Shown here: piece after piece, positions 53,113-57,879 of the stretch | Position numbering within the stretch: the first letter of the stretch is position 1 | How the letters are laid out: each line of letters begins with the position of its first letter | Origin: an uncultured Granulosicoccaceae bacterium | GTDB taxonomy: Bacteria > Pseudomonadota > Gammaproteobacteria > Granulosicoccales > Granulosicoccaceae | Direction of reading: 5' to 3' | NCBI GenBank assembly: GCA_937957915.1 | Contig: CALGNZ010000027.1 | Location: forward strand, 1-64,000 | Length of the DNA: 64,000 bases | Notes under the pieces: generated by a model | Seen by the model: only the letters and a program-made list of their open reading frames with translations | The model's database searches: none | What the model was told of the DNA's origin: nothing | Position numbers and translations under genes: made by a program

Positions 53113-54990
53113 CTAGAATGAAAACACCTGCCCTAATGCCAACGATACCGAGATGCCAGACTCTCCATCAACCGGGTCGAACGGGTAGGCCAAATCCAGT
53201 CGCATCACACCGGAACCCAGCAAGGTATTAGAGCCCAGTCGCAAACCGACCCCGGCGGCACTGCTAAGAGAAAGCTGGCCAGCATCATCACCAGCCCAGC
53301 CAGCATCCACAAAAGCCAGCAAGCCGACATCAATTTCACCAAGGTGCCAGCCGGTAAATATTCTATCCTCCAAATTAATTCGCAAGCGGCTGCTACCTGA
53401 AAACTGTCTTGCGGCATAGCCTCGCAGTCCATTATTCTCACCTAGCGTATATTGGGTAGGCAGATCCGCGCCACGCTCTGACGTAACGTAACTGATGCGC
53501 GTGGCAATTGTGTGAGAGTTAATAGCACGATTAAAAAGTTTCAGCGTGAGACCGGCAGACCACGACTGCTCATCCGAGCTCTGCAGGTTTGTATAACCAT
53601 CAAAGGTGACCTTACCGAACGTCTGTGCTGGCAGAACAGACAGTCGTCTCGAACCCAATGACACCTGATCGGAAACATCGCCAGACCCTTCTGCAATGGC
53701 GGAGCCAAATGCGTAACTCGCTTCGATGAACAGTGCCGGCTCTGTTTCACTAACGTCTGCAGCGTCGCTCGTATGATCAACACCCGCCAGTAATTCAGCG
53801 GAGTAACCAAAAGACAAATCCTCTGTGAACTGCACCGAATCAACACCATTGGTTTTCTCAAAGCGGTTATTTCGATTCACTGCAACCTGAGCGCCGGCAA
53901 AGACCCTTGTATTATCAAGTGGTGCATCAACAAGTTCTGGCTGCACCCCTCTCGTAGGTTCATAACTCTTCTGATCAAACCTTAATACAGAGCCATAACG
54001 AAAATAGCGGCGATGCACAGGCGTTATACCCGGGGAATGCCCTATGGAAAGACGACGAGACGCCTCCAGAATCAGCGACTCGCTCTGCCTGGGTATTTGT
54101 GCAACAGATACCCCGTTTTCATAGTAGTCAATGTCGCTTTCAATGCTTTCCGCTTTTACGGACCAGGACAGTTTGCTAGCCAGTGTTTTGAAGGGTCGCG
54201 AAAACTGAAAATGATAGAACCGCCCTTCTTCGGTTCTTCCTGCGGAATACGCCGCGGTATGATGGCGATCAATGAAATGAATGTCGTCGTAGGCAACCGC
54301 TCCGCGCAACTGTCCGTCAGTTGTGCCGGAATAACTCAGTAGCAAGCGATCGCCGGACCCATTGACATTACGCTCACCAACGGTAAAGCCTAACTCACCA
54401 ATCCCCCCCAGAAACGATCCGGAAGCACCGAATACAACAGACAAACGATCGCGCGTGTGAATATGCAACTCCGCATACTCGCTATCCAACGGCACCAGCT
54501 TCACGGCAACAGACGCGAACAACCCCATGGCTCGAAGGTTCCTCTCTAACTCCGCAACATCGGTGTTAAACACGCTTCGACCCGGTTCAAGGTCGATTTC
54601 TCGCACTATCGTTTTCTCACGCGTGGTTACGTGTAAGGCGTCTATGGCTCTATAGAGTTGTCGCGACAGGCGGTCATTCGCATCTTTATCACCCGTAACT
54701 GACGCAGAGCCGAAAATATCGCGCCGGTTAATAACGATATCGGAAAGTATGTATTGCCGAGGACCTGCTTCAACGTGGACTGACAACCTATCAGCGCTCA
54801 CTGCACCATCAGCACCGGGCTGCTCGACAGCTGCGATCTCAACACCCGATAAAGAAAGGCGCGGCAAGTGGGACAGACCTGATCCGACAGTAAACAAACT
54901 GGCATCTAAATGCCGAGTTGAATCACCGACAGGCGTCACGGCACCTAACTGATTGCAAAACCCGAAAAAAAGCAGCGCGACAATTCGCAT
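53113..54990 (-). CDS. BamA/TamA-family outer-membrane protein
   Basis: 625 residues: signal sequence (about 1-17), an N-terminal region, one POTRA-like domain (about 145-185; DVAELERNLRAMGLFASVAV) and a C-terminal Omp85 barrel. Barrel strands alternate hydrophobic residues, and the final strand VSLALGQVFSF ends in Phe, as the Bam machinery needs. ENNGLRGYAARQFSGSSRLR-like sequence resembles the conserved (V/I)RG(Y/F) barrel tip of Omp85 proteins. It has fewer POTRA domains than BamA, nearer to TamA or two-partner-secretion-like proteins. It is divergent from the metalloprotease. Confidence 0.82.
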   Translation of the reverse strand: MRIVALLFFGFCNQLGAVTPVGDSTRHLDASLFTVGSGLSHLPRLSLSGVEIAAVEQPGADGAVSADRLSVHVEAGPRQYILSDIVINRRDIFGSASVTGDKDANDRLSRQLYRAIDALHVTTREKTIVREIDLEPGRSVFNTDVAELERNLRAMGLFASVAVKLVPLDSEYAELHIHTRDRLSVVFGASGSFLGGIGELGFTVGERNVNGSGDRLLLSYSGTTDGQLRGAVAYDDIHFIDRHHTAAYSAGRTEEGRFYHFQFSRPFKTLASKLSWSVKAESIESDIDYYENGVSVAQIPRQSESLILEASRRLSIGHSPGITPVHRRYFRYGSVLRFDQKSYEPTRGVQPELVDAPLDNTRVFAGAQVAVNRNNRFEKTNGVDSVQFTEDLSFGYSAELLAGVDHTSDAADVSETEPALFIEASYAFGSAIAEGSGDVSDQVSLGSRRLSVLPAQTFGKVTFDGYTNLQSSDEQSWSAGLTLKLFNRAINSHTIATRISYVTSERGADLPTQYTLGENNGLRGYAARQFSGSSRLRINLEDRIFTGWHLGEIDVGLLAFVDAGWAGDDAGQLSLSSAAGVGLRLGSNTLLGSGVMRLDLAYPFDPVDGESGISVSLALGQVFSF

Positions 54991-55554
54991 TAGCTAAAAC
55001 TCACCTCCAGACCACAGAATGCATAACGCGAGCAATATTATTAAGAACAATGCTGCGCCTCTACTGTATTACGGTTAACTGGCATTATTCTTTTCATTGT
55101 TCGGCGGGAATCAGGCATCAGGGTAATTCCCACTTACACTCGACCAGCCCTGTCGGATACTCGACTCAGACAATCGAACGAGCCGGTTGGCAATCCTGCA
55201 CTTGAATACCGGTGCCTGATAAGAACCACGGTCGCGGTGTTTCGCCCCCTTACTGCTTCACCATAACACCAGTCACCTGACCGGAGTTTGTAGCTTTCTG
55301 TTTCAAAACCTGCAGTTTCAATCACTACACGATCAAGTAAACAGACAAAACTGCCGCCACAACACTGGGTAGTTGGGATTGCCGATTTCAACATTACTGG
55401 GGACTGTATGTTCAATAGTTGCATCCGATGGACCTCGCCAGTTACAAAATTGAAGACCCGCTTTCTCTTACTGTTGCTCAATGCCCGATTAAACTGCGAA
55501 AGCTGTCACACACTCAACCACTACACCGTTTCGATGCCTGAACCCGGAATGCTA
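54991..55554. other. Divergent gap between the BamA-like protein and the metalloprotease
   Basis: About 560 bases. The protease frame is open from 55408, but the sequence before the ATG at 55555 lacks a signal-peptide character and ribosome-binding site. Nothing else is seen. Confidence 0.35.
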
Positions 55555-57879
55555 ATGACACACGCACCAAAATGGCTGCCAGCTGCAATCGCCAGATGCG
55601 CTGTGCTTGCCATATTGTTTGTTACGTCCAACGGCGTCCATGCGAACAGCCTGATTGAGACAGCCCGGCAATTCGAAGAACGCGGCAACTATCGATCTGC
55701 TGTCGCCACCTATCAACAGTACCTGTCTGAAAGCCCTGCGAAAAGCGCTGCAACTCGTCTGGCCAGAATTAAACTACCTGTACTGCAGGAGACTATTCGT
55801 TACGGGCTGGATACGGAAGTCGTGCCATTCCTGGCTGCGCTGGACGCGAGAGCCATTGGCCTGACCGACGATGCGCTGGATCTATTGCAACAAATGATCA
55901 ACACCAACGCCGGTGGACATCTGATGGACGATGCAATTTTCATGAGTGCATACGTCACCCTGATGGACCACTACAATTTTGCTAAGGCCGGCGATACCTT
56001 GCAGCAACTGATCGAAGAATACCCGGACAGCCCGTATATCGATACCTCACTGTATTCGATTGCCATTGTCAATGAACAGCAGGGCGACGTTGAGGCTGCG
56101 ATCGCAACCTTAACCCGGCTTCGCGATCGGCATAACAGTTTAACGATTGCGGGCATGTCGTGGGCTAAAGACTCTTACCTGTCCCGTTTTTGGTTTGAGC
56201 GCGCCGACAATCGTATCAGGCACCTGGAAGAACATAAAAAGCAGGCATCACAACTCATCAGCATAGAGCAGGCTGTCGGTAACGGCTATCAATATCAGGC
56301 AGTAGTGCAGACAGACGGCAGAGAATTTACCCTGCTGCTAAACGAAAACCAGCTGACCACAGCCGTCAGTATTGTCAATGACCGCGGCACTCCTATCGCA
56401 CCCGCTGACGTCACCACCTATAAAGGTAAAGTCCAGGGCCTGGACAATTCATGGGCACGCATCAGCATTGATAATGGCAATTTACGCGGACTGATCGCTC
56501 TGCAAAACGAACAGATCCGTCTGCGCCCGAAAACAACGGGAGGCAGTCTTGCCGACTTTCACCCTCTTTTGCTCGGTGACATCGATGGCAATCAGGCCGC
56601 AGAGCAGGATCAGGTGCTATATCCACCGGCTCTCGGTAGTTTGACGGCCCCCGGTTCAAGTAGTAATAACCTGGGCAGCCTGGATATTGGTGGCCTCGAA
56701 AGCTCGCAAAATATACTGCCCGGCAACGACCGGAGCATCAAGTCATTCGATATTGGAGCTGCCAACAATGGTGTAAGCAAGGTTGCCCGTATTGGTGTTG
56801 TCGTCGATAGTAAATTCAACAACTACTTTGCCGGCCGTGGTGTTGATGAAGCGCTTAGCATTCTCAACTCAAGTGACGGTATCTTCCGTCAGCAAATCGG
56901 TCTCGCACTGAGCGTCGCCAAGGTAATTCTGATCGAAGACACCGATATAGACCCGATGAATCTGGGCAGCGTCACGATGGAAACGATGATGCGCAATTTT
57001 CGTGAATATCGCATGGACAGCAGCGAATTTGCTGCCGCAGATATTGGTCTGGCCACACTTTTCTCAGGCAATAAGAACAGCGATTCGGCGCTGGGGCTGG
57101 CATGGATAGGCTCTGTATGCAGAAGTGATGGATTCGATGTCAGCGTCGTGTCTCCGTATTCCCTTGCCGAATTGTTGTCGACGCACGAAATCGGACATAC
57201 GCTCGGTGCTCCACATGATTCGGACACTGCCTGTGCCAGCCAGACAAGCAATATTATGTGGCCATTTCTATCATCCGGCACGCAACAACAATTTTCCAGT
57301 TGCAGCAAAGATTCGGTTCAGTCTCTGATGGCGGCGAGCAGCTGTCATGTCGATGCAATCGATCTTGAAGTTGCCGTGGATCAGCTCTCGGACACGGAGG
57401 TACAGGTATCACTGACTAATCTGAACGCTTCACTCACAGCTTCAGGGGTTCAGCTGGCTGTAGAATCATCGGTGGCGACCGATCAACCACCTGCTGGCTG
57501 CTCACAATCGAGCCGCGCTGAAATCGATTGCAGGGTTTCATCACTGGATCCTTACGAGACTGCCTCATTTCAAATAGAATTGAGTCAGCCACTAATGGGT
57601 AGCGAAACCTTTCTGGCCCAAGCGGCACTACAAAGTGCTATAGACGTGGAGATTTCGAACAACGCAATTGAACTGGATGCCAATGGCAACAGCACACCGG
57701 TGAATCTGACAGGCAACACATTTACAAAAAGCCAGATTACCCAGGCGTCCAACAATTCTGGTCAAGCCGCTTCTGTAGGGGCAATGAACCCCGCAGCCTG
57801 GTTGCCACTGATACTGCTGTTAACGCTGTTTCGACGGCGAACGAAAGCCAGCTACAGATGCTCGAGGCAGTCTCGGTAA
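55555..57879 (+). CDS. Secreted reprolysin-type (M12B-like) zinc metalloprotease with C-terminal anchor
   Basis: 774 residues from the ATG at 55555, just before the signal peptide PAAIARCAVLAILFVTSNGVHA. Helical TPR-like repeats follow (about 30-200; ARQFEERGNYRSAVATYQQY, GDTLQQLIEEYPDSPYIDTS). After a beta-rich propeptide-like region is the protease, with RIGVVVDSKFNNYF, the zinc site HEIGHTLGAPHD and Met-turn SNIMWPF (about 540-590). A beta domain and a hydrophobic helix followed by FRRRTK (about 740-765) end the protein like a GlyGly-CTERM/sorting anchor. Export and surface proteolysis are inferred. Confidence 0.82.
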   Translation: MTHAPKWLPAAIARCAVLAILFVTSNGVHANSLIETARQFEERGNYRSAVATYQQYLSESPAKSAATRLARIKLPVLQETIRYGLDTEVVPFLAALDARAIGLTDDALDLLQQMINTNAGGHLMDDAIFMSAYVTLMDHYNFAKAGDTLQQLIEEYPDSPYIDTSLYSIAIVNEQQGDVEAAIATLTRLRDRHNSLTIAGMSWAKDSYLSRFWFERADNRIRHLEEHKKQASQLISIEQAVGNGYQYQAVVQTDGREFTLLLNENQLTTAVSIVNDRGTPIAPADVTTYKGKVQGLDNSWARISIDNGNLRGLIALQNEQIRLRPKTTGGSLADFHPLLLGDIDGNQAAEQDQVLYPPALGSLTAPGSSSNNLGSLDIGGLESSQNILPGNDRSIKSFDIGAANNGVSKVARIGVVVDSKFNNYFAGRGVDEALSILNSSDGIFRQQIGLALSVAKVILIEDTDIDPMNLGSVTMETMMRNFREYRMDSSEFAAADIGLATLFSGNKNSDSALGLAWIGSVCRSDGFDVSVVSPYSLAELLSTHEIGHTLGAPHDSDTACASQTSNIMWPFLSSGTQQQFSSCSKDSVQSLMAASSCHVDAIDLEVAVDQLSDTEVQVSLTNLNASLTASGVQLAVESSVATDQPPAGCSQSSRAEIDCRVSSLDPYETASFQIELSQPLMGSETFLAQAALQSAIDVEISNNAIELDANGNSTPVNLTGNTFTKSQITQASNNSGQAASVGAMNPAAWLPLILLLTLFRRRTKASYRCSRQSR

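What the first reader, a model, noticed from the sequence alone, without database searches (positions are those of the whole stretch)
53113..57879. Divergent BamA/TamA-like protein and reprolysin-type metalloprotease with C-terminal anchor
The protease has TPR-like repeats in front, an HExxHxxGxxHD site, and an end like a sorting tag (hydrophobic helix then RRR). Its neighbour is a short Omp85 protein. Together they could form an export or surface-display pair. M12B-type proteases with a TPR front part are unusual in bacteria.
Basis: partly seen in the sequence, partly recalled or inferred. Interest (0 to 1): 0.5.

Follow-up and report, generated by a model that had tools for sequence, protein, structure and literature searches.

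The report
Surface-anchored ADAM-like protease beside Omp85
A bacterial zinc protease related to snake-venom and ADAM enzymes carries a tail that probably pins it to the cell surface, and the outer-membrane protein gene beside it is a genuine but recent neighbour rather than its likely exporter.

Summary
Both genes are real: a one-POTRA Omp85 protein (53113-54990, minus) and, head-to-head, an M12B metalloprotease (start near 55555, to 57879, plus). The protease has a signal peptide, a BamD/YbgF-like TPR front, a prodomain resembling that of ADAM17, a reprolysin domain and a C-terminal helix plus RRR. The sorting-tag guess is well supported. The genome has a rhombosortase (143 bits, cut-off 84) beside type II secretion pseudopilin genes, plus GspD. 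Rhombosortase passes its cut-off in 47 of 48 genomes of the bacterial family. Relatives carry clear GlyGly-type tails; this copy's own tail is degenerate and fails the GlyGly-CTERM model.

The export-pair guess is not supported. The pair is divergent in 13 of 14 genomes of the genus and in one genome of a second genus with different flanking genes. In other genera the protease instead follows a gene for a small HAMP-domain membrane protein (28 of 29 loci; the exception is at a contig edge), and the Omp85 lies elsewhere or is absent. Most likely this is a surface-anchored protease delivered by rhombosortase and type II secretion. Its ancestral HAMP partner was lost and an Omp85 neighbour gained in one lineage. 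No experiment supports this; structure predictions failed.

The parts
53113..54990 (-). Omp85 superfamily outer-membrane protein, 625 aa; barrel about 53116-54444, loop-6 type motif LRGY at 53416-53427, ends in ...GQVFSF
54445..54753 (-). single POTRA domain of the Omp85 protein (boundaries approximate)
   Evidence: Pfam POTRA_1 stretch 123-165; alignment A2; profile match to POTRA of 2x8x and 9ccg
54991..55554 (.). divergent intergenic region between the two start codons; no sigma-70-type promoter pattern found
55555..57879 (+). M12B (reprolysin) metalloprotease, 774 aa from the likely start; signal-peptide-like N-terminus
55651..56169 (+). TPR front part (BamD/YfiO- and YbgF-like tetratricopeptide repeats), boundaries approximate
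   Evidence: TPR_6 in 26 of 26 and YfiO in 21 of 26 homologues at E up to 0.1; TIGR02795 2.8e-7 and TIGR03302 2.5e-6, both below cut-off
56314..56586 (+). prodomain-like region resembling the ADAM17 prodomain (G-x-V-x-G-x-x-x-SW-x-R); no conserved cysteine, so no cysteine switch
   Evidence: profile alignment to 9o54; cysteine columns
56779..57342 (+). reprolysin catalytic domain; zinc site HEIGHTLGAPHD at 57184-57219
57772..57840 (+). C-terminal tail: small residues, hydrophobic helix, RRR (degenerate GlyGly-CTERM-like tag)

Best explanation
The protease is a Sec-exported M12B zymogen. It is held in the inner membrane by its C-terminal helix, cut there by rhombosortase, exported by the type II secretion system and kept on the cell surface. 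Its ADAM-like prodomain keeps it latent, and its TPR front is a protein-docking module. The ancestral partner of this TPR front is a small HAMP-domain inner-membrane protein encoded just upstream. In genera g1 and g5 that gene is no longer beside the protease, and the protease gene sits head-to-head with a one-POTRA BamA-like Omp85 protein that is not its exporter. Shown: domains, tail, presence of rhombosortase and type II secretion genes, synteny patterns. Inferred: cleavage of this degenerate tail, surface location, latency, TPR docking, co-regulation through the shared intergenic region.
For: Rhombosortase TIGR03902 143 bits (cut-off 84), divergent from gspG/gspH-type genes read from the locus; GspD 597 bits; rhombosortase over cut-off in 47 of 48 family genomes and M12B homologues in all 48. 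Tripartite tails in 38 of 50 M12B proteins against 8 of 201 other ORFs by the same rule. HAMP gene directly upstream in 28 of 29 TPR-M12B loci of g2 and g4 (the missing one, G027, at a contig edge) and in the four outgroup loci of f52 and f61; 0 of 14 in g1 (read from contig numbers). The prodomain-like region aligns to the ADAM17 prodomain. Published precedent: VesB is cut by rhombosortase at its GlyGly-CTERM, modified and surface-located through type II secretion (PMC6219818, abstract and passages).
Against: The window copy's own tail has lost the GG pair (SVGAM) and does not match TIGR03501: it is not among the 12 own-genome hits at E up to 10 and not in the tail scan. Of the 8 orthologue tails scanned only two matched the model, both under its cut-off (13.6 and 15.1 bits against 15.5). 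G032 keeps a GG tail but has no rhombosortase over cut-off. No promoter pattern supports co-regulation.
Confidence: 0.6

Rival explanations
1. Two-partner export or display: the Omp85 protein moves the protease across the outer membrane, as TpsB moves TpsA or PlpD moves its patatin domain.
For: Head-to-head pair in 13 of 14 g1 genomes and in g5 with different left-flank genes; single POTRA plus barrel.
Against: The TPR front and whole protease occur without this Omp85 in g4: strong Omp85 matches in 1 of 27 g4 genomes, protease homologues in all. The Omp85 orthologues of G014, G022 and G016 lie by unrelated genes, away from the protease. No TPS-type domain appeared among the Pfam matches. A type II secretion/rhombosortase route is present.
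Confidence: 0.1
2. Periplasmic quality-control module: the BamD-like TPR docks the protease on the POTRA domain of the Omp85 protein, and the protease clears misassembled outer-membrane proteins, as the TPR metalloprotease BepA does at the BAM complex.
For: YfiO (BamD) profile matches 21 of 26 proteases at E up to 0.1, best 8.6e-8; Omp85 neighbour; the window copy's degenerate tag could be an uncleaved inner-membrane anchor. BepA precedent seen only as search-listing abstracts.
Against: The same TPR goes with a HAMP protein elsewhere and also occurs on a separate TPR protein beside HAMP in the own genome, so it did not arise for this POTRA. Tails of close relatives are typical surface-sorting tags.
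Confidence: 0.12
3. Accidental neighbours: the two genes are next to each other only because the genus keeps general gene order.
For: The whole neighbourhood (aminotransferase, MarR, thioesterase, DsbA, HAD genes) is largely conserved across g1.
Against: In G017 (g5) none of the ORFs on the readable left flank match the window's neighbours, yet the divergent pair is kept. This is one case, and its right flank is cut by the contig end.
Confidence: 0.15

Closest known systems
GlyGly-CTERM / rhombosortase substrates delivered by type II secretion (VesB; also a putative metalloprotease, VCA0065)
   Same: N-terminal export signal, protease body, C-terminal small-residue/helix/basic tail, rhombosortase and type II secretion in the genome (PMC6219818 passages, PMC13393428 abstract, section 5 and passages)
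   Different: M12B class with TPR front and ADAM-like prodomain; the GG pair is lost in this copy and TIGR03501 does not match it
M12B reprolysins: snake venom metalloproteinases, ADAM10 and ADAM17
   Same: Catalytic domain by profile (trimerelysin II 2.9e-18; ADAM17 7.8e-16) and prodomain-like alignment to ADAM17
   Different: Bacterial; TPR front; no cysteine switch; no disintegrin region among the Pfam matches shown
'BamA-like' Omp85 subfamily with 1-3 POTRA domains (Heinz and Lithgow 2014)
   Same: POTRA plus Omp85 barrel, present in addition to other Omp85 proteins of the genome (PMC4104836 passages)
   Different: Own profile does not find the genome's three other Omp85 proteins; subfamily membership itself not tested
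BepA, TPR-bearing M48 metalloprotease at the BAM complex
   Same: Zinc metalloprotease plus TPR in the envelope (PMC7950410 and PMC8423444, search listings only)
   Different: Different protease family and domain order (recalled); sorting tail; partner is not BAM

Membership tests
M12B reprolysin peptidases | Pfam reprolysin model over curated cut-off | tested here: met
   PF13688 61.4 bits against 27 and four further reprolysin models over cut-off
M12B reprolysin peptidases | HExxHxxGxxHD zinc site and downstream Met | tested here: met
   H545, E546, H549, H555, D556, M569 invariant in 26 of 26
M12B reprolysin peptidases | cysteine-switch prodomain as in many ADAMs (recalled feature) | tested here: not met
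   no conserved Cys between the signal peptide and position 523, though the prodomain-like region aligns to ADAM17
GlyGly-CTERM / rhombosortase substrates | TIGR03501 match over cut-off | tested here: not met
   window tail unmatched; L015 13.6 and L018 15.1 bits against 15.5
GlyGly-CTERM / rhombosortase substrates | tripartite tail: small/Gly residues, helix, basic end | tested here: met
   window copy passes the rule; 38 of 50 M12B proteins. The strict GG pair is absent in the window copy
GlyGly-CTERM / rhombosortase substrates | rhombosortase and type II secretion in the genome | tested here: met
   TIGR03902 143 bits, GspD 597 bits
GlyGly-CTERM / rhombosortase substrates | cleavage by rhombosortase and surface location | not testable with these tools
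   needs experiment
Omp85 superfamily | POTRA domain plus Omp85 barrel with RGY/RGF motif (motif recalled) | tested here: met
   9 of 17 match POTRA, 8 of 17 PF01103; GLRGY invariant; window copy alone has no Pfam match at 0.01
BamA or TamA orthologues | NCBIfam equivalog cut-off | tested here: not met
   TIGR03303 29.5 bits against 297; NF047950 21 against 625
Two-partner secretion (TpsB/TpsA) | two TpsB POTRA domains and a TPS domain in the partner | tested here: not met
   one POTRA seen; no TPS-type domain among the Pfam matches of the protease; ShlB matched 3 of 17 weakly

The most novel reading that the evidence does not exclude
In genera g1 and g5 an ADAM-like zymogen protease swapped its inner-membrane HAMP partner for an Omp85 partner. 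Its BamD-like TPR domain now docks on the single POTRA of that Omp85 protein, making a dedicated outer-membrane assembly, quality-control or shedding module in which the protease is displayed or activated at the Omp85 site.
Probability: 0.12. Interest if true: 0.65.

Novelty: new variant of a known kind. Interest (0 to 1): 0.4.

Why it matters
It links a bacterial M12B zymogen, with a prodomain like that of ADAM17, to the rhombosortase surface-anchoring route. It also exposes a conserved but uncharacterised module: a small HAMP membrane protein followed by a TPR protein that is either a lipoprotein or a protease. The partner change, HAMP elsewhere and Omp85 in g1 and g5, gives a natural comparison for asking what the TPR front of such proteases binds. 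The searches listed no paper whose title or abstract start describes this combination.

Tried and rejected
Structure prediction of the protease core and of the Omp85 protein from single sequences gave mean pLDDT 31.0 and 28.5. They are unusable and no fold search was made. Promoter scan: nothing above chance. A BamA or TamA orthologue was rejected. An operon was rejected because the genes are divergent. HAMP adjacency was not found in G015 (g3), where the protease also has no Omp85 neighbour. In the HAMP adjacency count I gave the script 32 of the 48 family genomes: the three g2, 26 of 27 g4 (G042 left out because no full-length TPR protease was listed for it, whose list was cut), G015, G017 and G000. 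The other g1 genomes were read by contig number; G018 and G021 were not examined for it. The tail rule was made after looking at tails, and its 201 background ORFs are mechanical ORFs. Its 12 failures include contig-cut proteins (L033, L120), two proteins that end soon after the protease domain (L012, L161), tails that miss the strict charge or hydropathy limits (L005, L018, L022, L024) and L021, L110, L141, L160.
Full report
What is there. The window lies in contig C27 of a 5.38 Mb draft genome. Two genes face away from each other: an Omp85-type protein, 53113-54990 on the minus strand, and a metalloprotease on the plus strand whose ORF opens at 55408, with a signal-peptide-like start at the ATG at 55555, ending at 57879. 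They are divergent, not an operon, and no sigma-70 type promoter pattern was found between them.

The protease. Pfam finds reprolysin domains (best 1.7e-16) and TPR repeats (TPR_6 1.5e-11), over cut-off. In an alignment of 26 homologues the zinc site and the Met after it are invariant, and all 26 match both the reprolysin and the TPR_6 models; 21 of 26 also match YfiO (BamD) at E up to 0.1, best 8.6e-8. The profile finds snake-venom and ADAM catalytic domains in the PDB (trimerelysin II 2.9e-18, ADAM17 7.8e-16). The region before the catalytic domain aligns to the ADAM17 prodomain, including its G-V-GEPDS stretch (domain i-Evalue 0.0043 on its own). No conserved cysteine lies in that region, so there is no cysteine switch; six cysteines further on are invariant in 26 of 26.

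The tail. The last residues, SVGAMNPAAWLPLILLLTLFRRR and a short extension, have the layout of a rhombosortase tag. The genome has a rhombosortase at 143 bits against a cut-off of 84, next to and divergent from genes that read as the pseudopilins GspG and GspH (names from their N-terminal motifs, recalled), and a GspD at 597 bits. Across the bacterial family rhombosortase passes its cut-off in 47 of 48 genomes, and all 48 have M12B homologues (50 of 95 genomes with a match, 48 of them in this family). By one simple rule 38 of 50 M12B proteins have the tripartite tail, 28 with a GG pair, against 8 and 3 of 201 other ORFs. Against this, the window copy has lost the GG pair and does not match TIGR03501, the orthologue tails that match at all score just under its cut-off, and G032 has a GG tail without a rhombosortase over cut-off. 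[quoted passage not shown] A surface location for this protease is therefore likely but not shown.

The Omp85 protein. It has one recognisable POTRA domain, a barrel with the invariant GLRGY motif and a C-terminal aromatic residue in most rows. It is not BamA or TamA by NCBIfam cut-offs, and its family profile does not find the genome's other three Omp85 proteins. It resembles in build the 'BamA-like' subfamily with 1-3 POTRA domains of Heinz and Lithgow (PMC4104836, passages). Those authors suppose that such proteins assist outer-membrane protein assembly; membership was not tested.

The pairing. In genus g1 the divergent pair is present in 13 of 14 genomes; in the fourteenth, G008, the protease lies at a contig edge. 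The neighbourhood as a whole is largely conserved in g1, so this alone says little. In G017 (genus g5) the pair is kept although no ORF on the readable left flank matches the window's neighbours; the contig ends within the protease, so the right flank is unseen. Outside these genera the pairing fails. Strong Omp85 matches occur in 17 of 48 family genomes (13 of 14 g1, the single g5, 2 of 3 g2, 1 of 27 g4, none in g3 and g6), and in G014, G022 and G016 the Omp85 gene lies among unrelated genes on another contig than the protease.

The other partner. In g2 and g4 the TPR protease follows directly after a gene for a small membrane protein of about 200 aa with a HAMP domain (HAMP model over cut-off in two of three tested): 28 of 29 loci, the exception being at a contig edge. 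The same neighbour precedes the TPR proteases of the outgroup families f52 (three genomes) and f61 (one genome, profile E 8.2e-9 in a small set). Members of the HAMP family occur in 47 of 48 family genomes, one copy in each of the 14 g1 genomes and two in 24 of 27 g4 genomes. In the window's own genome the single HAMP gene precedes a TPR protein homologous to the protease's TPR front; its G007 counterpart has a lipobox-like N-terminus (my reading) and a weak VesB/HYDIN-like Ig match. The catalytic-domain tree places the g1 and g5 TPR proteases as one clade, sister to those of g2 and g4. The simplest account is that the TPR front belongs with the HAMP protein, and that the g1/g5 lineage lost that neighbour beside the protease and gained the Omp85 neighbour.

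Rarity. In 369 genomes drawn from the class, 15 have any match at E up to 1e-10. Matches that span TPR front and protease occur in 7 of them, in families f1, f52 and f61.

Verdict. The export-pair idea is weak. Most likely this is a surface-anchored ADAM-like zymogen protease using the known rhombosortase and type II route, with a lineage-specific Omp85 neighbour of unknown role.

Noticed in passing
L159:8007-9863 (own genome, C47), L111:8586-10412, L149:8823-10563, L150:7656-9391: Conserved two-gene module: small HAMP membrane protein followed by a TPR protein (lipobox-like in L111) with a weak VesB/HYDIN-like Ig domain; its TPR is homologous to the protease's TPR front.
   Followed up: partly
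window 55555-57879 (L004 in the tree): The window's protease sits on an unusually long branch (0.61 against about 0.05-0.2 for most genus relatives) and has one of the weakest GG motifs, which may mean relaxed or changed function in this species.
   Followed up: no
L117:8098-9846 and L161:6963-8753 (G006 and G005): A second TPR-M12B paralogue that ends soon after the protease domain, without the C-terminal domain and sorting tail and not beside an Omp85 gene.
   Followed up: no
L106:8352-9992 and L107:7819-9531 (own genome): Shorter M12B paralogues (547 and 571 aa) without TPR but with clear GGG-helix-basic tails; the L107 locus is syntenic across g1, g2 and g4.
   Followed up: partly
L109 and L110 (G007): M12B proteins of about 1000 aa with no sorting tail, ending in a GDGWGWDG/GDGWGWNG-type motif that looks like a repeated binding module.
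   Followed up: no
G032 (family survey): The only family genome without a rhombosortase over cut-off, although its TPR protease (L031) keeps a GG tail.
   Followed up: no
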